From: Lachnospiraceae bacterium AC2031 | GTDB lineage: Bacteria > Bacillota > Clostridia > Lachnospirales > Lachnospiraceae | NCBI GenBank assembly: GCA_000687975.1 | Contig: JIAB01000001.1 | Coordinates: 3,076,001 to 3,140,000, forward strand | Direction: 5' to 3' | DNA length: 64,000 nt | Part shown: piece by piece, positions 36,129 to 46,647 of the stretch | Layout of the letters: every line of letters begins with the position of its first letter | Numbering within the stretch: the stretch's first letter is position 1 | Position numbers and translations under genes: made by a program | The notes under the pieces: model-generated | What the model saw: the letters and a program-made list of their open reading frames with translations, nothing else | Told to the model about the DNA's origin: nothing | The model's database searches: none

Positions 36129-38525
36129 ATGTTTATAGCTCATATAAATAATAAGGGGGAACAACAGTCTTGCAAGGATCATTCGTTGGGAACAGCAAGA
36201 ATTGCAAAAGATAGATTATCTTGCATTAATCTAGGTGATGCAGCCTTTCTTGCAGGTGTTTTACACGATGCTGGTAAGTTCACTGATGAATTCAACGATT
36301 ATATAAAAAAAGCATACAACAAGGAAAAAGTAAATAAAGGATCAGTTATTCATACATTTACTGGGTGTTCATATATATTAAATAAATATCATAAAGGAGA
36401 TTTAGGATATGAGGATATCACATCAGAAATAATTGCATATTCTATTGGAGCTCATCATGCGTTGTTTGATTGTGTTAATGAAGATGGGGATAGTGGCTTT
36501 GATCATAGATTATTCAAACAACCAGAATATGATAATAGGGCTATTAATAATGTATTTAATGATTGTATATCTAGTGATGATATTGATGCATTATTTAAAT
36601 CTGCAATTTTAGAAATCAAAGACAAGATTGATTGTTTATTTGAAGCAGATTATGGAAAAAATGATAGTCTTGTAAAGATTTATTATATTGGTATGCTTAC
36701 TAGATTACTTCTATCATCGGTTATAGATGGAGATAGAATAGATACTTTCAATTTTATGATAGGTGAAACAAAGGATTTACATAATCTGTTACCTGATTGG
36801 GAAACGGGGATTAATAATTTAAATAAGTATCTTGATTCATTTGAAAAGAATAATGAAATTGAAATAGCAAGAAATGAATTATCTAATATTTGCGCAGATT
36901 TTTCAAATAACAAACCAGATATTTATGAATTGAAACTTCCGACCGGTGCAGGAAAAACTTTATCCAGCATGAAATATGCGATAAAACATTTAATCAAATA
37001 TAAAAAGAAAAGGATTTTCTATATTGCTCCACTGATTAGTATTTTGGAACAGAATTCAAGAGTAATAAAGGAAGCGCTTGGTAATTCAGTCACTGTATTG
37101 GAGCATCACTCAAGTGTTGTTATGGAAGATGATTCTAATGATGTGATTGAAGAAGAAATAAATAAGAATACTTATCAATTATTAACAGATAACTGGGATT
37201 CGCCAATTGTTATTACAACATTGGTTCAGTTTTTATTTACACTATTTGGTGGAAAAACTTCTCAAGTTCGTAGATTTTCAAGTTTAGTTGACTCAGTGAT
37301 TATTATTGATGAAGTTCAAACTGTTCCTAGAAAAATGCTGTCACTTTTTAATTTGGCAATAAACTTTTTGAAACTATCTTGTAATGCTACAGTAATTCTT
37401 TGTTCAGCGACACAACCATCTTTTGATAAGTTAGATATAAATATGCTTGTATCGCCATATAAGTTTTTAACTGATGAACAAGAGGATTATTTTTCGTCGG
37501 TATTTAAAAGGAGTGATATATCTTTTGGTGGAAGCTATAAACTTGAAGATATGCCGTCTTATATAGAAGAGGTATTAAACAACAGTGACAGTCTTTTAGT
37601 TGTTTGTAATAAAAAGAAACAAGCTGAATACATATATAATAAACTAAATGGTTGCGATGCTAGTATATATCATTTATCGGCTTCTATGTGTGCTACACAT
37701 AGAGAAGATATTCTAAAAAGAATTATTGATTCATTATACAACAAAGAAAAGGTGATATGTGTTTCAACACAAGTAATTGAAGCGGGCGTTGATATTTCAT
37801 TTAGTACTGTAATTAGATTTGAAGCAGGTCTTGATAGTATCATTCAATCAAATGGTAGATGCAATAGACATGGTGAATTAGAAGGTGTTGCTCATACTTA
37901 TGTAGTTAGATGCATGGATGAAGATTTAACAAGATTAGAAGATATCAGAATAGCAAAAAATGCAATGACAGAATTGTTAGAGGACTTTAATGAGAATTCA
38001 AGCATATATGATAATGATCTGACATCAAAGAAATCGATCAGTATTTTTTATGATTTGCTATACCGTTCGTATAATATCAAAAAAACATATTATTATGTGT
38101 CAAATATTGATAATAAACTTCTATATATTTTATCAGATAATAATAAGTGGGCATCCAAGAAGAAACATGCTAATAATTATTTTTTGAATCAAGCTTTCAA
38201 AACGGCAGGATTTTATTTTGACCCTTTGGATAATGATATGGTTACGTTATTAGTTCCATATAATGAAGGGGAAGAAATAATAGTTGATTTATGTTCAGAA
38301 AGGGCTAAATACGATATTTTGTATGCTAAGCGATTAATTGGAAAAGCAAAAAAATACAGTGTTTCCCTAATGCGATATCAAGTAAAAGAATTAAAAAATA
38401 AAGGTGCTATATACAATATATTTAGTGATTCAATTATGGTATTGAAAAAGGAATACTATGATAACAATACAGGCGTGATAGACGGAAAGGAGGGAGTTAA
38501 AGAATGCAACATCCTAATATTGTAG
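36129..38525 (+). CDS. cas3: Cas3 helicase-nuclease, type I-C
   Basis: A 798-residue protein. The N-terminal HD nuclease domain has KDHSLGTA and LHDAGK; the helicase has Walker A LPTGAGKT, a DEVQ-type motif II (IIIDEVQTV), SATQP (motif III) and QSNGRCNRHGE (motif VI). Cas3 is recruited to a target-bound Cascade and degrades the DNA strand. Length and motif set are normal and intact. It is the first gene of the cas operon and overlaps cas5c by 22 bases. AT-rich compared with the flanks. Confidence 0.95.
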   Translation: MFIAHINNKGEQQSCKDHSLGTARIAKDRLSCINLGDAAFLAGVLHDAGKFTDEFNDYIKKAYNKEKVNKGSVIHTFTGCSYILNKYHKGDLGYEDITSEIIAYSIGAHHALFDCVNEDGDSGFDHRLFKQPEYDNRAINNVFNDCISSDDIDALFKSAILEIKDKIDCLFEADYGKNDSLVKIYYIGMLTRLLLSSVIDGDRIDTFNFMIGETKDLHNLLPDWETGINNLNKYLDSFEKNNEIEIARNELSNICADFSNNKPDIYELKLPTGAGKTLSSMKYAIKHLIKYKKKRIFYIAPLISILEQNSRVIKEALGNSVTVLEHHSSVVMEDDSNDVIEEEINKNTYQLLTDNWDSPIVITTLVQFLFTLFGGKTSQVRRFSSLVDSVIIIDEVQTVPRKMLSLFNLAINFLKLSCNATVILCSATQPSFDKLDINMLVSPYKFLTDEQEDYFSSVFKRSDISFGGSYKLEDMPSYIEEVLNNSDSLLVVCNKKKQAEYIYNKLNGCDASIYHLSASMCATHREDILKRIIDSLYNKEKVICVSTQVIEAGVDISFSTVIRFEAGLDSIIQSNGRCNRHGELEGVAHTYVVRCMDEDLTRLEDIRIAKNAMTELLEDFNENSSIYDNDLTSKKSISIFYDLLYRSYNIKKTYYYVSNIDNKLLYILSDNNKWASKKKHANNYFLNQAFKTAGFYFDPLDNDMVTLLVPYNEGEEIIVDLCSERAKYDILYAKRLIGKAKKYSVSLMRYQVKELKNKGAIYNIFSDSIMVLKKEYYDNNTGVIDGKEGVKECNILIL

Positions 38526-39226
38526 AGTTTAAAGTATATGGGGCTTATGCTCTTTTCTCAGATCCAATAACACGAGTTGGAGGAGAAAAGTGTTCTTATC
38601 AAATTCCAACATATGAAGCTTTAAAGGGGATAGTATCTTCGATTTATTGGAAGCCAACTATTATTTGGTATATTGATAAGGTTAGGGTAATGAATCGTAT
38701 TCAGACAGAAGTCAAAGGTATACGGCCATTAAAGTATAATGGAGGTAATGATTTGGCCTATTACACTTATTTAAAGGATTGCTGTTATCAAGTACAAGCT
38801 CATTTTGAATGGAATATGAATCGACCTGAACTTGCAAAAGATCGTAATGAGAATAAACACCATGAAATAACTAAAAGAATGATTAATAGAGGTGGAAGAA
38901 GAGATATTTTCCTCGGTACCAGAGAATGTCAAGGGTATGTTGAACCGTGTGTATTTGGAGATGGGAAAGGGGCCTATGATGATATTAATCATCTTCAGTT
39001 TGGACTTATGTATCATGGGATAACTTATGCTGATGAAGCATATTCAGAAGAAACAAAAGATATGATGACAGTTAACTTATGGTATCCAGAAATGAAAAAA
39101 GGTGTAATTGATTTTGTAAAACCTAAAGATTGTCCACTTCATAAACCGATTCATAAAATGGAGATTAAAAAGTTTGGAGTGGATGAAAACTTTTCTGGTT
39201 TAAAAGAATTTGAGGAGGTGAATTAA
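38504..39226 (+). CDS. cas5c: Cas5c (Cas5d), crRNA-processing Cascade subunit
   Basis: A 240-residue protein. It shows the Cas5 N-terminal fold (FKVYGAYALFSDPITRVGGEKCSYQIPTYEALKGIV in part) and the I-C-type continuation IYWKPTIIWYIDKVRVMN. In type I-C, which has no Cas6, Cas5c cuts the repeat RNA and stays on the 5' handle. Full length. It overlaps cas3 and abuts cas8c by 1 base. Confidence 0.93.
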   Translation: MQHPNIVEFKVYGAYALFSDPITRVGGEKCSYQIPTYEALKGIVSSIYWKPTIIWYIDKVRVMNRIQTEVKGIRPLKYNGGNDLAYYTYLKDCCYQVQAHFEWNMNRPELAKDRNENKHHEITKRMINRGGRRDIFLGTRECQGYVEPCVFGDGKGAYDDINHLQFGLMYHGITYADEAYSEETKDMMTVNLWYPEMKKGVIDFVKPKDCPLHKPIHKMEIKKFGVDENFSGLKEFEEVN

Positions 39227-41013
39227 TGGGGTTATTACAACAGGCGGTAAAAACATATGATTCATTTTCATCAATGGGTTTAGTTGGAAAATATGAAGAA
39301 GGAAAAGAAGAACCATTAGCACCGATTTGTCATTTATTAACTACAGCTCATATTATAATTACAATAAATAAGAATGGAGAGTTTGTATCTGCAGAGAGAT
39401 TAGAAAAAAAAATAATTATACCAGTAACTGAAGAATCGGCAGGAAGGACAAGTTCTGCGAGTCCGCATCCTTTAAATGACAATATCAGTTATATTTCAGG
39501 AGAAGATGAAGAAAAAATAAATAAATATTTAGAATGTATATCAAAATGGGCTGATTCAGATTATTCAGATATACAATTAATCCCTATTATTAAGTATGTA
39601 AAAAGAAAAACCTTAATCAATGATTTAAAAAAATCAGGTCTTCTTAAACTTGATGAAAAGGGTGAGATTAAGAACAATAAAGACTTGGTTACCTGGAAAA
39701 TTATAGGATTAGAAAACAAGTATGTTCCAGTATATGAAGATGTTGATTTAATGAAAAAATATAGTGAATATTACTTAACTATAAAAAATGATAATGAATC
39801 AAATGATTCTATTTGTTATGTTACAGGAAAAAAGGAAGTTCCGGCAATTCAACATTTAAAAGGAGTTTTTTCTCTTAATGGAAATGCAAAGATTATTTCT
39901 TCAAATGATTCTGCAAATTATACATATAGAGGGAGATTTATTAGTCCTGATGAGGCACTTTCAATAGGATATATTTCTTCGCAAAAGGCTCATAATGCTC
40001 TTAAATGGCTTGTTTCGAATCAAAAGCAATACTATGGAAATAGAGTTTTTATATGTTGGAATCCAAATGGGAAAGAGGTTCATTCTATACAAAGTCCACT
40101 TTTAAATAGAAGTTCAGAAAGACAGTTATTTCCGTCGGATTATAAAAAAGAGTTAGCACAGTTATTGGAAGGATATAAAAAGGATATATCTGATGTTGAT
40201 GATGTTATTATATGTTCTTTTGACGCGGCTACAACGGGGCGCTTATCAATTTCATATTATAATGAACTGAAAGAGTCTGATTTTCTTGACAGATTATACG
40301 ATTGGGATACTACTTGTTGTTGGATTAGTTATAAGTATGGTGTTTATTCTCCGAGTTTATATGATATTGTGAAATATACGTTTGGTTATCAAAGAGGAAA
40401 TGATGATAATGCTAAAATAGAAGTTGATGACTTAATAAAAGCTCAGTATATACAAAGACTGATTTCGTGTAGAGTAGATCGATTTAATATTCCTCAAGAT
40501 ATACTAAATAGAATAGTTAATAATGTTAGTAATTTGCAGATATATAATAAGGTTAATAGAAATAAATTGTTGTTTATAGCTTGTGCGGTTATACGAAAAT
40601 ATCATTGCGATTATTTAAAGGAGGATTGGGTGATGGCTTTGGAAAAAGATAAGAATGATAGGAGTTATCAATTTGGTAGACTTCTTGCAGTTTTAGAAAA
40701 GATAGAAAAGGATACATATGATAACGGAGAAAGCCGGGAAACAAATGCGATTAGGATGCAATCAGTTTATGTAAAAAGACCATTATATGCTTTCAGAATA
40801 ATTATTGAACAATTGAAGAATAGTTATTTTCCTAAACTTAATCCAGGACGAAGGGTATACTATGACAAATTAATAAGTCAAATAATGGATAAGATATCAG
40901 AGTTTAAAGACGAAGAGATAAATAATACATTGAGTGATACATATTTACTTGGTTATTATTTACAACAAGCGGATTTATATACAAAAAAAGATGACAATGA
41001 TAAGGAGGATTAA
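39226..41013 (+). CDS. cas8c: Cas8c (Csd1), large Cascade subunit
   Basis: A 595-residue protein of the Csd1 family: N-terminal LLQQAVKTYDSF, central CYVTGKKEVPAIQHLKGVFSLNGNAKIISSN-like zinc/PAM-recognition region (NDSANYTYRGRFI follows), and C-terminal helical portion with FGRLLAVLEKIEKDTY. It recognises the PAM and recruits Cas3. In family length range and open throughout. One-base overlap with cas5c; ribosome-binding site GAGGAGGTG. Confidence 0.93.
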   Translation: MGLLQQAVKTYDSFSSMGLVGKYEEGKEEPLAPICHLLTTAHIIITINKNGEFVSAERLEKKIIIPVTEESAGRTSSASPHPLNDNISYISGEDEEKINKYLECISKWADSDYSDIQLIPIIKYVKRKTLINDLKKSGLLKLDEKGEIKNNKDLVTWKIIGLENKYVPVYEDVDLMKKYSEYYLTIKNDNESNDSICYVTGKKEVPAIQHLKGVFSLNGNAKIISSNDSANYTYRGRFISPDEALSIGYISSQKAHNALKWLVSNQKQYYGNRVFICWNPNGKEVHSIQSPLLNRSSERQLFPSDYKKELAQLLEGYKKDISDVDDVIICSFDAATTGRLSISYYNELKESDFLDRLYDWDTTCCWISYKYGVYSPSLYDIVKYTFGYQRGNDDNAKIEVDDLIKAQYIQRLISCRVDRFNIPQDILNRIVNNVSNLQIYNKVNRNKLLFIACAVIRKYHCDYLKEDWVMALEKDKNDRSYQFGRLLAVLEKIEKDTYDNGESRETNAIRMQSVYVKRPLYAFRIIIEQLKNSYFPKLNPGRRVYYDKLISQIMDKISEFKDEEINNTLSDTYLLGYYLQQADLYTKKDDNDKED

Positions 41014-41017
41014 AACA

Positions 41018-41860
41018 ATGAGTGTATTAAAAAACAAAGTGGATTTTATGGTACTAGTATCTGTAACAAATGCAAATTCTAATGGGGATCCATTAAATGG
41101 AAATAGACCACGTACTGATTATAATGGATTTGGCGAAATATCAGATGTCTGTATTAAAAGGAAAATTAGAAACAGAATGCAAGATATGGGACATTCGGTT
41201 TTCGTTCAATCAGATGATAGATCAGATGATGGTTCAAAGTGTTTAAAGGACAGAGCGAAGATATTAGAAAAGGAAAAAGATCAAGATGTGTTTGCTCGTA
41301 AAGCCAGTGAAACATGGATAGATGTAAGAACTTTTGGACAGGTTTTTGCTTTTAATGGATTTAATTGTAAGTCGGTTGGTGTGCGTGGCCCAGTATCTAT
41401 TCATCAAGCAGTAAGTATTGATCCTATTGAAGTAAATTCCATGCAGATAACTAAGAGCGTTAGTGGAGACAAGAAAGAAGGACAAGATAAAGGCTCGGAT
41501 ACAATGGGAATGAAGCATTTTGTTCGATTTGGTCTTTATAAAATAAAAGGTTCTATTAATGTACAATTGGCTGAAAAAACTGGTTTTTCAGAAGAGGATG
41601 CAGATACTATAAAGGAATGTCTTAGAACACTTTTTGTTAATGATGTTTCTTCTGCAAGACCTGATGGTTCTATGGAAGTTATTAAAGTTTATTGGTGGAA
41701 GCATAATTGCAAAGATGGACAATATTCATCTGCAAAAATCCACAAGCTAGTTAATGTTTCGCTAAAAGAAGGTGTGATGATTCCTCATTCGGTAGATGAT
41801 TATAATATATGTGTAGATAGTTTAGATGGACTTTCATTAGAAGAAATTGATGGTATTTGA
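41018..41860 (+). CDS. cas7c: Cas7c (Csd2), Cascade backbone subunit
   Basis: A 280-residue RAMP-fold protein of the Csd2 family: VDFMVLVSVTNANSNGDPLNGNRPRTDYNG (cut), SIHQAVSIDPIEVNSMQITKSV and the C-terminal VKVYWWKHNCKDGQYSSAKIHKL-like region. Several copies line the crRNA in Cascade. Full length. The start at 41018 has AAGGAGG upstream; the earlier frame overlaps cas8c. Confidence 0.94.
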   Translation: MSVLKNKVDFMVLVSVTNANSNGDPLNGNRPRTDYNGFGEISDVCIKRKIRNRMQDMGHSVFVQSDDRSDDGSKCLKDRAKILEKEKDQDVFARKASETWIDVRTFGQVFAFNGFNCKSVGVRGPVSIHQAVSIDPIEVNSMQITKSVSGDKKEGQDKGSDTMGMKHFVRFGLYKIKGSINVQLAEKTGFSEEDADTIKECLRTLFVNDVSSARPDGSMEVIKVYWWKHNCKDGQYSSAKIHKLVNVSLKEGVMIPHSVDDYNICVDSLDGLSLEEIDGI

Positions 41861-41870
41861 TAGGTTGCTT

Positions 41871-42266
41871 ATGAACAATGAAGATGATTATTTAATGATG
41901 TCAGGAATTCAACATTTTGATTTTTGTCGTAGACAATGGGCGCTTATTCATATAGAGCAGCAGTGGAAAGAAAATGTACTAACGACGGAAGGCAAAGTAG
42001 ATCATGAAAAATGTCATAATGAAACACTTATCGAAAAGAGAAACGATATTATAATTATGCGTGGGATGAGAGTGGTTTCTCATCAGCTTAAATTGAGTGG
42101 AAATTGTGATGTTGTAGAGTTTCATAGGATTAATGATGGAATATCTTTATCTAAATACTCAGATAAATGGTTACCGGTTCCAATCGAATATAAGCATGGA
42201 GAATCCAAATGGATAGATGCAGATAGACTTCAACTATGTGCACAAGCTATTGCACTTAGGTACTGA
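41871..42266 (+). pseudogene. cas4: Truncated cas4
   Basis: The frame gives 131 residues against about 210-220 for Cas4 of type I-C. The start is typical (NNEDDYLMMSGIQHFDFCRRQWALIHIEQQW, cut here). The RecB-nuclease motifs GNCDVVEF, IEYKHGE and QLCAQAIAL are present, with the first of four Fe-S cysteines in DFCRRQW. The frame then breaks after AIALRY, so the C-terminal three-cysteine cluster is missing. An active prespacer-processing Cas4 is unlikely. The start at 41871 is preferred over 41847; the start overlaps nothing essential of cas7c. The sequence after the break looks like the end of cas2. Confidence 0.85.
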
Positions 42267-42297
42267 TTATTCTCAAGATGATATCTTAATTCTTTAG
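42259..42297 (+). pseudogene. cas2: Probable remnant of the cas2 3' end
   Basis: In the frame shifted from cas4, the bases read GTDYSQDDILIL and a stop at 42295. Type I-C Cas2 proteins commonly end in a short acidic/hydrophobic tail of this kind (for example ...DPLIF or ...GTLIL), and the gene is normally followed directly by the leader, as here. cas1 and the rest of cas2 are absent. The match is short, so this is an inference. Confidence 0.5.
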
Positions 42298-42453
42298 CGC
42301 GAAGTTATAACAAACATATAATGCTGGATATCTTCGCACTTTAGATTGTGTGTGTTATGTGATAATTTATTATTTTTTTCAAAAAACATATCTAGATTAT
42401 ATATAATTACTTAAAATTATATAATTAAATCTAGATTTTTGGTGTTTTTTGCT
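42298..42453 (+). promoter_or_regulatory. CRISPR leader
   Basis: A 156-base AT-rich leader lies between the cas2 remnant and the first repeat. It has an imperfect inverted repeat at 42390-42436 (ATCTAGATT...AAATCTAGAT) that ends 17 bases before the array. It should carry the array promoter; no clear -35/-10 pair was assigned. Confidence 0.75.
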
Positions 42454-43480
42454 GTCTCTCTCCGTGTGGAGAGAGTGGATTGAAATATTGCGGGTTCGCC
42501 ATCATTCCCAATCTTTGAAGTCTCTCTCCGTGTGGAGAGAGTGGATTGAAATTATTGCAACCGCAGCATCATCTGCACTATTAGTGTCTCTCTCCGAGTG
42601 GAGAGAGTGGATTGAAATTGTGAAATACCCTTTACTGTTGAATACCCCATATGTCTCTCTCCGAGTGGAGAGAGTGGATTGAAATATCCATGGATAAAGC
42701 ATAGCTCCATCCGCTGCAAGTCTCTCTCCGAGTGGAGAGAGTGGATTGAAATCCTGTCGCTATGGAGTCAACCTATGATGCACCAGTCTCTCTCCGTGTG
42801 GAGAGAGTGGATTGAAATTTTAGAATTACTGCATTTGGTAAACAGGGTGAGATGTCTCTCTCCGTGTGGAGAGAGTGGATTGAAATGACGGTATAACCGA
42901 GCGAGAGGCAGAAATGCTGTCTCTCTCCGTGTGGAGAGAGTGGATTGAAATAGCATAAAAGCGAGTTGATGATGAATGAGTAAGGTCTCTCTCCGTGTGG
43001 AGAGAGTGGATTGAAATATCACCGCGCCGTATAGGTCATACAGCCCTAGTCGTCTCTCTCCGTGTGGAGAGAGTGGATTGAAATCGTTAAATAGATTTAT
43101 ACCCGCCGTTATAATCGTCTCTCTCCGTGTGGAGAGAGTGGATTGAAATATAAGCATACTCCTATTGTGTAAATTGCGGGCGTCTCTCTCCGTGTGGAGA
43201 GAGTGGATTGAAATTGCCTGATGGGACGAATACGTCTCAACAACCGATTGTCTCTCTCCGTGTGGAGAGAGTGAATTGAAATGTCTCCGTCTGTCGTTTG
43301 CTCATTTCGATTAACGTCTCTCTCCGTGTGGAGAGAGTGGATTGAAATTTGGATTACGCGTTTTTTTTCGTCACTCTTAGAGGTCTCTCTCCGTGTGGAG
43401 AGAGTGGATTGAAATTTGCAAACAGAACATATGCTGCTAGAGGAATCCTGTCTCTCCGTGAGGAGAGAGTGGATTGTATA
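42454..43480 (+). CRISPR. Type I-C CRISPR array, 16 repeats and 15 spacers
   Basis: The 33-base repeat begins GTCTCTCTCCGTGTGGAGAG and ends with GTGGATTGAAAT, the typical I-C hairpin repeat and handle. Starts: 42454, 42520, 42586, 42653, 42720, 42786, 42854, 42919, 42985, 43052, 43117, 43182, 43250, 43316, 43383 and a degenerate last one at 43450. Spacers are 32-35 bases. Repeats 3-5 have GAG in place of GTG in the loop. Repeat 13 has GTGAATTG. The last repeat lacks two bases and the handle (GGATTGTATA), marking the far end. The array is on the plus strand, with the leader on the left. Confidence 0.97.
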
Positions 43481-43533: not shown

Positions 43534-45126
43534 ATGATTATGTTTGAGATTATTGATTATGATTTTAAAAAGGATACATATGGCGATGAAGATTATTTAG
43601 ATAATTGGCCAATGATTTATATTCTGGAAAATGGTAAAAAAGCATATATTGGTGAATCGAATCATGTTAAAACTCGAATGACTCAACATGCTACGAATGA
43701 AGAAAAGAAGATTTTTAATAAGGTTCATTTTATTTATTCCAAAATGTTTAATCAATCGGTTACATTTGATTACGAATCGAAATTGATTCAATATATAGTT
43801 GCTGATGAATTATTTGAAGTAACAAACAAAAATTCTGGTATTGCTGATAAACAATACTACAACAAAGATGTATATGATGAGAAATTTGAACAGTTATGGA
43901 GAAAGTTGCAAAAGGCTAAACTAGTTAAACATTCTCTTGAAGAAATAGAAAATTCAGATTTGTTTAAATATTCTCCGTATAAAGAATTAAATGATGATCA
44001 AAGAAAATCAGTTGATGATATTCTTACAAAATTAGAAGAAGGAAATACAAAGTGCATAGTTGTTAATGGAATGCCTGGTAGTGGTAAGACCATAGTTGCA
44101 GTCTATTTGATAAAGTATTTATTAGATAGTGAAGAATTTCATGATAAAAAGATTGGTTTTGTGGTTCCTCAGACATCCTTAAGAAAAACCATGAAAGGAA
44201 TATTTAAAAGTATATATGGATTATCTCCATCGCAAGTTTTATCTCCGTCTGATGTTACAAAAAATAAATATGATATATTGTTGGTTGATGAGGTTCATAG
44301 ATTACATCGATATAAAAATATATCGTATATGGGAACATTCAAAAAAAACTGTGATAAATTGGGATTAACAACTGAGGCGGATGAATTGGATTGGATATTA
44401 AAACAGTCTGATTTCACTATACTGTTTTATGATGGGCTTCAAGTGGTTGGTCCTTCTGGTTTGGATGCTAATCGAATAAAAGATAAAATGTATTCGATTA
44501 TAAAAAATCAATATGTTGCATATTATAGTTTGAAAACCCAGATGCGTGTGCTTGGGGGTAATGATTACATTTCATTTGTTAGAAGTCTATTTGATGGGAC
44601 ATGTGATAGAAGATATGTTTCAGATAATTATGAGTTGAAGTTATATACAGATTTTTCGAGATTTGAGAAGGATATGTATGATAAAGAAACTAAGAATTCT
44701 TTATGTCGTATGGTTGCAGGATATTCTTGGAAATGGATTAGTAAAACAGATGACTCATTATATGATATAAAAATACAAAATATATCTAGAAAATGGAATC
44801 ATTGTACTGAAGGATGGGTTTTGACACCAGAAGCAATAGATGAAGTTGGATGTATTCATTCTATTCAAGGCTATGATCTTAATTATGCATATGTCATTCT
44901 TGGTTATGATATTGGATTTGATAAGAATACGAATCAAATAGTAGTTTATCCTGAGAACTATTATGATAGTAATGGAAAGAGAACTGCTTCATATGATGAA
45001 TTATTAGAGTATATAAAGAATATATATTATGTATTATTAACCCGAGGCATTAAGGGAACATATTTGTATGTTTGTGATGATGATTTAAGAGATTATTTAA
45101 GTAAGTACATAGAGGTAAAAAGATAA
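43534..45126 (+). CDS. GIY-YIG nuclease fused to DUF2075 (Schlafen-like) ATPase
   Basis: A 530-residue protein. N-terminal GIY-YIG domain: MIYILENGKKAYIGESN, then Arg in VKTRMTQH and Glu in DYESKLIQYI. From about residue 150 a P-loop ATPase of DUF2075 type follows: Walker A NGMPGSGKT, Walker B ILLVDEVHRLHR, LKTQMRV and a C-terminal UvrD-like motif (YVLLTRGIKGTYLYV). It may sense and cut foreign DNA with ATP power. It starts 54 bases after the last CRISPR repeat. It is followed by MazG after 4 bases, so an operon. I do not know a named defence system of this exact set. Confidence 0.82.
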   Translation: MIMFEIIDYDFKKDTYGDEDYLDNWPMIYILENGKKAYIGESNHVKTRMTQHATNEEKKIFNKVHFIYSKMFNQSVTFDYESKLIQYIVADELFEVTNKNSGIADKQYYNKDVYDEKFEQLWRKLQKAKLVKHSLEEIENSDLFKYSPYKELNDDQRKSVDDILTKLEEGNTKCIVVNGMPGSGKTIVAVYLIKYLLDSEEFHDKKIGFVVPQTSLRKTMKGIFKSIYGLSPSQVLSPSDVTKNKYDILLVDEVHRLHRYKNISYMGTFKKNCDKLGLTTEADELDWILKQSDFTILFYDGLQVVGPSGLDANRIKDKMYSIIKNQYVAYYSLKTQMRVLGGNDYISFVRSLFDGTCDRRYVSDNYELKLYTDFSRFEKDMYDKETKNSLCRMVAGYSWKWISKTDDSLYDIKIQNISRKWNHCTEGWVLTPEAIDEVGCIHSIQGYDLNYAYVILGYDIGFDKNTNQIVVYPENYYDSNGKRTASYDELLEYIKNIYYVLLTRGIKGTYLYVCDDDLRDYLSKYIEVKR

Positions 45127-45130
45127 AACT

Positions 45131-45451
45131 ATGAATAAAGAAACAATTGAAAGAATAAGGAAATTTACTGACGATAGGGATTGGAATCAATTTCATTCTC
45201 CTGCAAATTTAGCAAAATCAATATCTATTGAATCAAATGAGCTTTTAGAATGCTTTCAATGGGATGAAGATAATTTCGATATTGATTGTGTTAAAGAAGA
45301 ACTGGCAGATGTTTTAGTGTATTGCAGAAACATGCTTGATGTATTGGAACTTGATGAAGATGAAATCGTAAATGATAAGATGACGAAAAATGAGAAGAAA
45401 TATCCTGTTGAGAAGGCTAAGGGAAGTTCAAAGAAGTATAACGAATTATAA
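45131..45451 (+). CDS. MazG-like nucleotide pyrophosphohydrolase
   Basis: A 106-residue MazG-type protein. The conserved EExxE...ExxD metal-binding pattern is visible in SIESNELLECFQW and KEELADVLVYCRNML. Such enzymes cleave NTPs or dNTPs to NMP and pyrophosphate and can deplete nucleotides during infection or clean up damaged ones. Only 4 bases separate it from the upstream GIY-YIG/DUF2075 gene, a pairing I believe recurs. Confidence 0.85.
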   Translation: MNKETIERIRKFTDDRDWNQFHSPANLAKSISIESNELLECFQWDEDNFDIDCVKEELADVLVYCRNMLDVLELDEDEIVNDKMTKNEKKYPVEKAKGSSKKYNEL

Positions 45452-45492
45452 TATATTTTTAATAGAAAACTTATTGGGAGTATTTTTATTAT

Positions 45493-46647
45493 ATGCAGAA
45501 TGATATTACTGATGTTATAAATTCTGAATATTATAATAAGCTTGATATAGAAGGGTTCTCAAATATGATGAAGAACCCTTCTTATTGTTACAAATTCTAC
45601 TGGCTTGAAGCTATTGTTAATCTTATTTCTGAGGATATTCGATATACTACATTTAATGATATTATCGATGAGATGATAGCAAATGCTTGGTATTCTGTTG
45701 TTGAGTTTCATATCCATTTGAGTGGTATTGTTGAGGGTGAAGTTAGAGATGGCCTTGAAAGGGCTGTTATTAAGCTGGCTGAGTTGAGTCATCTAAGTAG
45801 CAATGCATCCAAAGTTGAGATTAAGAATGCCATCAAAGAATATGATAATGATCTGAAACAGGAAAAGAAACAGCTTACCAACATGGTACCTTATAGGGCT
45901 TTAGCTGGCTTCTTTGTTAAGTCTGATCAAGGAGTTAACTGGGAGAATTTAACTAAGCTGGTTTCGTATATTGAATACTTTGATAAGTCTATATCAATAC
46001 TCCCATACATATTGGGTACAAGTCCTGGACTTAAGAAAGAGGTTATATTCAGCAGAGATTGGATGAATATGATTCAGGATAATACAGTAGAAATTCTTGG
46101 TTGGATCCAATTTGAGAAAATAAAATGGCTGCAGAATAACAATCCAGATGTTCCTGGTCTTGTCTATAAGCTTGAACCATTGAACGAAAAAATGAGGAAG
46201 CTTGGTAATGTTAGGAAACTTTGGGATGCCATTTTAGATACAAATAGTATTAATGATGTTTTTACTGGCGATATCATCGATAAGAATTCTTTTGATGTAG
46301 ACCATTTCGTTCCATGGTCATTTGTGATGAATGATGAGCTTTGGAATCTTATGCCTATGGATAGCAGCCTGAATTCAAGTAAGAGTAATAAACTACCTAA
46401 GTGGGATCCGTTCTTTGAGAGGTTTGCATCTAATCAGTTCCTGATGTATCAGAAGAAGAATGAATATGAATCTATACATAAACTCTTCGAGAAATGCTAT
46501 AGGGACAATCTTCATTCTATATGGGCTAATCAGGAGCTATATCGACCTGGGAATACACAGGTTGAGTTTTATAATATATTAGAGAAGAATATGAGACCCG
46601 TCTATGATTCGGCTAGAAGACAGGGATATCAGTTGTGGGATATTTGA
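45493..46647 (+). CDS. HNH endonuclease-domain protein
   Basis: A 384-residue protein. The N-terminal 250 residues are helical and unassigned. A C-terminal HNH nuclease is clear: FDVDHFVPWSFVMNDELWNLMP, with a downstream NSSKSNKLPKW, giving His-Asn-Asn/Lys metal and phosphate contacts. This type occurs in defence islands and as a stand-alone restriction-like nuclease. It starts 41 bases after mazG and is probably part of the same operon. Codon use remains AT-rich. Confidence 0.8.
   Translation: MQNDITDVINSEYYNKLDIEGFSNMMKNPSYCYKFYWLEAIVNLISEDIRYTTFNDIIDEMIANAWYSVVEFHIHLSGIVEGEVRDGLERAVIKLAELSHLSSNASKVEIKNAIKEYDNDLKQEKKQLTNMVPYRALAGFFVKSDQGVNWENLTKLVSYIEYFDKSISILPYILGTSPGLKKEVIFSRDWMNMIQDNTVEILGWIQFEKIKWLQNNNPDVPGLVYKLEPLNEKMRKLGNVRKLWDAILDTNSINDVFTGDIIDKNSFDVDHFVPWSFVMNDELWNLMPMDSSLNSSKSNKLPKWDPFFERFASNQFLMYQKKNEYESIHKLFEKCYRDNLHSIWANQELYRPGNTQVEFYNILEKNMRPVYDSARRQGYQLWDI

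What the first reader, a model, noticed from the sequence alone, without database searches (positions are those of the whole stretch)
41871..42453. A type I-C locus that has lost its adaptation genes by a clean internal deletion
cas3, cas5c, cas8c and cas7c are full length and open, so interference may still work. cas4 stops after about 131 codons, before its C-terminal Fe-S cysteines. The bases right after the break read, in another frame, GTDYSQDDILIL-stop, which looks like the tail of cas2, and the leader begins just after it. cas1 and nearly all of cas2 are therefore missing. The simplest event is one deletion from inside cas4 to the last codons of cas2. The array would be frozen: it can be expressed but not extended.
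Basis: partly seen in the sequence, partly recalled or inferred. Interest (0 to 1): 0.75.

Follow-up and report, generated by a model that had tools for sequence, protein, structure and literature searches.

The report
CRISPR immune system that lost acquisition
A bacterial CRISPR immune system has lost, apparently in one internal deletion, the genes that record new infections while keeping the genes that use old records; this is a clear new example of a known kind of half-system, and similar losses are seen among its relatives.

Summary
Confirmed. The window carries a type I-C CRISPR locus with full-length cas3, cas5c, cas8c and cas7c, and a 15-spacer array. cas4 ends after 131 codons. The next bases encode, in another frame, the last 10-12 residues and stop of Cas2; that tail ranks first of 7,149 stop codons in the window against a profile of 65 relatives' Cas2 tails. 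In relatives L010 and L012, full cas4, cas1 and cas2 lie there: L012 has about 1.57 kb where the window has 7 bp. The genome (one 3.19-Mb contig) shows no Cas1, no Cas2 above cut-off, and no second array with this repeat. The leader is kept whole.

The cas4 remnant shows no excess of changes, so the loss looks recent (small counts). cas1 is deleted in 9 of 73 scorable related loci, at different endpoints, but all nine are metagenome assemblies. Genome-wide loss is rare: 95 of 96 sampled genomes with Cas8c have a Cas1 match somewhere; this one has none. A published Pseudomonas I-C group with a frameshifted cas1 still targets phage, so this is a new member of a known kind. Not shown: expression, interference, read support.

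The parts
36129..38525 (+). cas3 (HD nuclease-helicase), 798 aa, open
   Evidence: Pfam PF22590 Cas3-like_C_2 2e-17, DEAD 6.5e-13, HD 0.0012 below its cut-off; match to L010 and L012 over 2-798 and 1-798 at 52-53%
38504..39226 (+). cas5c, 240 aa, open
   Evidence: PF09704 7e-39; 84-85% identity to L010/L012 over the whole length
39226..41013 (+). cas8c (csd1), 595 aa, open
   Evidence: PF09709 3.3e-107; 58-61% to L012/L010
41018..41860 (+). cas7c (csd2), 280 aa, open
   Evidence: PF05107 1.9e-82; 80% to L010 over 1-280
41871..42266 (+). truncated cas4: 131 codons, about 129 of cas4 origin; lacks the C-terminal cysteine stretch (KCKSCSLNEICVPKLC in L012)
   Evidence: alignment with L012/L010/L033; PF01930 23.1 bits against cut-off 22.7, profile positions 3-92 of 160
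42258..42264 (.). deletion junction: cas4 homology ends at GCA CTT (42252-42257), cas2 homology is clear from GAT (42265). L012 has about 1.57 kb between the homologous points
42259..42297 (+). tail of cas2 and its TAG stop, out of frame with the cas4 fragment
   Evidence: rank 1 of 7,149 stops against 65 Cas2 tails; letters checked
42297..42339 (+). leader element: inverted repeat GCGCGAA-29-TTCGCAC
   Evidence: 13 of 14 arm bases; 54 of 54 aligned leaders score 12-14, shuffled at most 11
42298..42453 (+). leader, ending TTTTTTGCT before the first repeat
   Evidence: alignment of 54 leaders
42454..43478 (+). CRISPR array: 15 full 33-nt repeats, a decayed terminal repeat from about 43450, 15 spacers of 32-35 nt

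Best explanation
This is a type I-C CRISPR-Cas locus whose adaptation module was removed, most simply, by one internal deletion of about 1.56 kb. The deletion ran from inside cas4 (after about codon 129) to the last 10-12 codons of cas2. cas1 and nearly all of cas2 are gone, and cas4 lacks its C-terminal cysteine stretch. The interference genes, the whole leader and the array remain. Shown from sequence: the gene content, the junction, no detectable Cas1 or Cas2 elsewhere in the genome, and the whole leader. Inferred: the array is still transcribed, Cas5c processes it, Cascade and Cas3 still cut matching DNA, and no new spacer can be added unless Cas1-Cas2(-Cas4) arrives from outside. The loss is probably recent relative to the split from L012.
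For: cas7c-cas4-cas1-cas2-leader-array is the usual order in relatives. The Cas2 tail is the best in the window. No Cas1 and no Cas2 above cut-off in the single-contig genome; the Cas1 family search rings in 9 of 14 control genomes. The only array with this repeat is this one (15 copies at up to 3 mismatches). The cas4 remnant is open, 74% identical to L012, and has no clear excess of lineage-specific changes (11 v 7, outgroup L010; 7 v 9, outgroup L033). Interference proteins are full length. A locus with the same kind of cas4-to-cas2 deletion exists, L026.
Against: No reads, so an assembly error at the junction is not excluded. No intact allele of the same species was found, so the parental sequence and any microhomology are unknown, and more than one event is possible. 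No spacer target was found (5 of 15 spacers searched), so nothing shows that interference works. The tail scores well below the median of true tails. The relative-rate counts are small.
Confidence: 0.92

Rival explanations
1. Assembly error: the cas1-cas2 stretch was dropped by the assembler and the real genome has it.
For: No reads available. All nine related loci with cas1 deleted are metagenome assemblies (record titles), so some of those could be assembly faults.
Against: The window's genome is one contig, 99.8% complete. Relatives carry one cas1 in this place, so its loss by repeat collapse has no obvious cause (inference). L014, L020, L026, L032 and L037 have other endpoints, as real deletions would.
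Confidence: 0.04
2. Adaptation is supplied in trans: a mobile element lends Cas1-Cas2, and the kept leader still accepts spacers.
For: The leader and its conserved element are whole. A published P. aeruginosa I-C group has diverse spacers despite a shared cas1 frameshift, 'through an unknown mechanism' (PMC7913775, section 24 read).
Against: No Cas1 and no Cas2 above cut-off in this genome. The donor would have to be transient and compatible with this repeat and leader.
Confidence: 0.1
3. The whole locus is a decaying relic with no remaining function; the deletion is one step of neutral loss.
For: No cas4 match in any of 36 same-genus genomes, many of them incomplete. Low G+C (30.8% against 39.4% for the window) suggests foreign origin.
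Against: Four interference genes totalling about 1,900 codons have no stop or frameshift. 11 of 15 full repeats are identical and the other 4 differ by one base. A recent deletion would look the same, so this is not decisive.
Confidence: 0.25

Closest known systems
Type I-C CRISPR-Cas, complete form (L010 'Acetatifactor sp.' MAG; L012 Bacillota MAG)
   Same: Gene order cas3-cas5c-cas8c-cas7c-cas4, leader element, repeat ending GTGGATTGA
   Different: The window lacks cas1, nearly all of cas2 and about 40% of cas4
L026, Clostridia MAG RGIG1839 (goat caecum in its title)
   Same: cas4 start joined to cas2 end, with leader and array kept and interference genes full length
   Different: Endpoints are cas4 about codon 30 and cas2 about codon 48, so a different event; metagenome assembly
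Pseudomonas aeruginosa type I-C on pKLC102-like islands, lineages 3-4 (PMC7913775; passages and section 24 read)
   Same: Adaptation broken (shared cas1 frameshift) while interference works: PaLML1, of lineage 3, targets phage with I-C crRNAs
   Different: A frameshift, not a deletion; on a conjugative island; PaLML1 also has a type I-F system; spacers differ between the two lineages despite the frameshift
CRISPR-associated transposons, and adaptation-less type IV and some type III and VI systems (PMC8616872; passages read)
   Same: No adaptation module
   Different: There the absence is a feature of the class, and transposon-borne type I systems lack Cas3 activity. Here cas3 is open, and the remnants show a recent local loss

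Membership tests
Type I-C CRISPR-Cas | Signature Cas8c (Csd1), with Cas5c and Cas7c | tested here: met
   PF09709 3.3e-107, PF09704 7e-39, PF05107 1.9e-82
Type I-C CRISPR-Cas | Cas3 helicase-nuclease in the operon | tested here: met
   window 36129-38525
Type I-C CRISPR-Cas | Array of the relatives' repeat class with leader, downstream on the same strand | tested here: met
Type I-C CRISPR-Cas | No cas6; Cas5c processes the repeat | tested here: inconclusive
   No frame of cas6 size lies between the cas genes. Cas6 elsewhere in the genome was not searched; processing was not testable
Type I-C CRISPR-Cas | TTC PAM at targets | tested here: inconclusive
   No target found for the 5 of 15 spacers searched
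Adaptation-proficient CRISPR-Cas | cas1 and cas2 present in the genome | tested here: not met
Adaptation-proficient CRISPR-Cas | Cas4 with its C-terminal cysteines | tested here: not met
   cas4 stops before them
Interference-only CRISPR locus | crRNA made and matching DNA destroyed | not testable with these tools
   needs RNA and interference assays

The most novel reading that the evidence does not exclude
In gut and rumen Clostridia, type I-C loci repeatedly shed the adaptation module while interference, leader and array persist, because a fixed memory is kept by selection once acquisition becomes costly. The leader's 43-bp inverted repeat is then not an acquisition-only site but an array promoter/operator element that must survive the deletion.
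Probability: 0.2. Interest if true: 0.55.

Novelty: new member of a known kind. Interest (0 to 1): 0.33.

Why it matters
It gives a natural, probably interference-only type I-C system with a complete leader, in a single-contig genome with no detectable other Cas1 or Cas2. That allows two direct tests: does interference persist after adaptation is lost, and which parts of the leader serve transcription rather than acquisition? If the 9 of 73 related loci with deleted cas1 are real, separating memory use from memory writing is a common outcome in this group. The kind itself is already in print.

Tried and rejected
Naturally short cas4: rejected. Uninterrupted related cas4 ORFs are about 209-246 codons.

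Chance similarity of the tail to Cas2: rejected, rank 1 of 7,149.

Adaptation genes elsewhere in the genome: none found. The protein search had no positive control; the family searches did. The two sub-threshold PF09827 matches (E 0.18 and 0.56) were not followed. Arrays with other repeats, and other cas families, were not searched in the genome.

Spacer targets: three exact patterns (spacer 1 whole, parts of spacers 4 and 9) gave 0 matches in viral contigs. Spacers 1, 2, 5 and 9 searched singly in phages gave no match, except spacer 5: two records of one Lactococcus phage, 21 of 22 bases, E 0.3, taken as chance. Ten of 15 spacers were searched in no outside collection. All 15 were compared with the window and the loci then held; the best foreign match was spacer 4 to L056, 16 bases, E 0.004, taken as chance and not followed.

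RNA families: nothing in the window at gathering thresholds. Leader scan: 1 sigma-70-like site (1.8 expected) and 1 terminator-like site at 42335-42352 (0.1 expected); neither was pursued.

Microhomology at the junction: GCACTT of cas4 and the His-Phe codons of Cas2 could share 5-6 bases, but the parental sequence is unknown. Left open.

RNA stem in the leader element: the arm bases hardly vary and the flanking positions do not covary in the tally, so nothing favours an RNA stem over a DNA site. No formal covariation test was run.

Species name: not determined.

Full report
What is there. The window holds a type I-C operon on the + strand. cas3 (36129-38525), cas5c (38504-39226), cas8c (39226-41013) and cas7c (41018-41860) are open reading frames with strong Pfam matches. 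All four align over essentially their whole length with the best named relatives, L010 and L012. The array is at 42454-43478, with 15 full repeats, one decayed terminal repeat, and spacers of 32-35 nt.

The break. cas4 starts at 41871 and stops at 42266, 131 codons. Its protein aligns with L012, L010 and L033 Cas4 (74, 67 and 63% identity) up to ...LQLCAQAIAL, and then ends where the relatives continue EEMLVC... to the C-terminal cysteines. The next bases, in another frame, read GTDYSQDDILIL and stop at 42297. Against a profile of the last 12 residues of 65 relatives' Cas2 proteins this scores 16.5 bits. It is first of all 7,149 stop-anchored 12-mers in six frames; the second scores 7.9. It is weaker than the median true tail (31.4) and inside their range (7.3-37.8). 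In L012 the homologous points lie about 1.57 kb apart and hold the rest of cas4, all of cas1 and most of cas2; in the window they lie 7 bp apart. One deletion is the simplest explanation.

No replacement. The genome is one contig of 3,191,482 bases, 99.8% complete. PF01867 (Cas1) finds nothing, TIGR01573 (Cas2) nothing, PF09827 only two matches below cut-off, E 0.18 and 0.56, and L012 Cas1 as a query nothing. The three family searches ring in 9, 7 and 10 of 14 control genomes. The only matches to the repeat within 3 mismatches are the 15 in this array.

Age and origin. A neutral remnant should gather replacements. Relative-rate counts on the cas4 remnant are 11 window-specific against 7 L012-specific (outgroup L010) and 7 against 9 (outgroup L033). 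The interference proteins are similarly even, chi-square at most 2.0. The loss is therefore recent relative to the split from L012, or the counts are too small to show decay. The locus may be horizontally acquired: G+C is 30.8% for 36129-42300 against 39.4% for the window, and none of 36 same-genus genomes has a cas4 match at E 1e-8. That search tested cas4 only, and many of those genomes are incomplete.

Recurrence. Of 80 named related loci (the search kept 80 of 131), 7 cannot be scored: the contig ends before cas1 in L016, L027, L079 and L081, and inside it in L044, L048 and L087. Of the 73 left, 61 have a full-length cas1 match. In 9 it is absent or a remnant: L014, L020, L026, L032, L037, L039, L061, L065 and L067. 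In 3 it is broken: L024, L049 and L088. Endpoints differ: L026 cas4 about codon 30 to cas2 about codon 48; L014 the cas4 start (read by eye) to just before cas2; L020 inside a frameshifted cas4 to the leader element; L032 cas4 about codon 45 straight into a repeat; L037 cas4 about codon 19, a cas1 remnant, then a repeat; L061 cas7 to the leader. The interference genes still match over most of their length in 8 of the 9; the exception is L020, whose cas5 is split and whose cas3 is cut by the contig start. Against this: all nine are metagenome assemblies by title (L032, L039 and L065 also third-party). Of nine scorable loci whose titles I read as cultured strains (L015, L024, L030, L040, L049, L053, L057, L063, L064), none has cas1 deleted, though two have it broken. 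L065 and L067 show no array in the stretch held.

At genome level, loss is rare. In a sample of 398 genomes of the phylum, 96 have Cas8c, and 95 of these have a Cas1 match somewhere, of any type (79 of 80; 16 of 16). The window's genome is the one without. G320 has only weak Cas1 matches (best E 1.4e-8). I fetched nine of these loci where Cas1 was not in the expected place. In G284 and G120 (L121, L124) cas7 is followed by repeats with no match to my cas4, cas1 or cas2 queries in the 12-14 kb held.

The leader. In 54 of 54 leaders aligned (53 relatives plus the window) a GTGCGAA-N28/29-TTCGCAC element begins at or shortly after the cas2 stop. It scores 12-14 of 14 arm bases, against at most 11 in shuffled controls. 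Fifteen of 68 rows were left out because no array motif followed the cas2 stop within 230 bases or the contig ended: of the 12 long enough to test, 4 score 13-14, one scores 11 and seven score 8-10. The exact element occurs in 23 of 398 genomes of the phylum sample, against 3 for the reversed pattern. Set against, 17 of those 23 are among the 96 genomes with Cas8c and 6 are not, so most genomes with Cas8c lack an exact copy; the window's own copy has one arm change and is not counted. I fetched 18 stretches holding 19 elements that do not lie directly beside an I-C Cas1 match or come from genomes not searched for Cas1. Downstream of 13 there is a tandem repeat array starting 114-139 bases away. 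Three more have two or more repeat motifs at array spacing, two have a single motif at the expected distance, and one (L139) has none. Six of the 19 lie on contigs with no Cas8c or Cas1 match (G178 C21, C26 and C30; G159 C36; G240 C45; G340 C24), and all six have repeats downstream. The element therefore belongs to the array's leader rather than to cas2.

In the adaptation-less loci that still have a leader, the arms score 13 (window), 14 (L014), 14 (L020), 14 (L026) and 11 (L061) of 14. The L020 and L061 stretches were chosen by hand around GCGAA, and 11 is also reached by 2 of 54 shuffles. Retention fits a role in array transcription, or simply recent loss. I found no description of the element in three searches of the held library (no paper, listings only), which is weak evidence of novelty.

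What is known. A P. aeruginosa I-C group with a shared cas1 frameshift includes strain PaLML1, in which I-C crRNAs block phage (PMC7913775, passages and section 24). So interference without intact cas1 is documented for type I-C, and its authors note unexplained spacer diversity despite the frameshift. A review (PMC8616872, passages) notes adaptation-less systems in type IV and in some type III and VI, and says that some incomplete systems function. The present case is a new member of that known kind, by a clean deletion. Other papers were seen as search listings only, except PMC10333696 (passages), which did not bear on it.

Mechanism, shown and inferred. Shown: gene content, junction, no detectable Cas1 or Cas2, whole leader and array. 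Inferred: array transcription, Cas5c processing, Cascade-Cas3 interference, and no spacer gain. Not testable here: expression, interference, reads.

Noticed in passing
window 42297-42339; 54 aligned leaders; L129-L146: A conserved 42-43 bp inverted-repeat element (GTGCGAA-28/29-TTCGCAC) opens 54 of 54 aligned type I-C leaders and also lies upstream of arrays on contigs without a Cas8c or Cas1 match. Fixed spacing and near-invariant arms suggest a protein-bound DNA site. Only 17 of 96 Cas8c genomes have an exact copy.
   Followed up: partly
L014, L020, L026, L032, L037, L039, L061, L065, L067: Nine of 73 scorable related I-C loci have cas1 deleted or reduced to a remnant, with different endpoints. 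In L032 and L037 the leader is gone too and cas remnants run straight into the array. All nine are metagenome assemblies.
   Followed up: partly
L074:8520-8780: Part of cas2 matches on the opposite strand between cas1 and the leader, with a cas2-like tail still in place: cas2 seems broken by a small inversion.
   Followed up: no
window 42586-42752: Repeats 3, 4 and 5 share a T-to-A change (CCGTG to CCGAG), whereas repeats 1-2 and 6-15 have CCGTG. Simple copying of the leader-proximal repeat does not give this order without a back change or recombination.
   Followed up: no
window 43534-46647: Just after the array lie a GIY-YIG plus Schlafen-group-3 helicase protein, a MazG-like protein and an HNH endonuclease, which may be a further defence gene cluster.
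   Followed up: no
L121 (G284) and L124 (G120), same genus: cas7 is followed by repeats with no match to the cas4, cas1 or cas2 queries in the stretch held; each genome has a Cas1 match elsewhere.
   Followed up: no
L127 (G372): I-C cas1 matches in two pieces with a stop between, while cas4 and cas2 are present.
   Followed up: no
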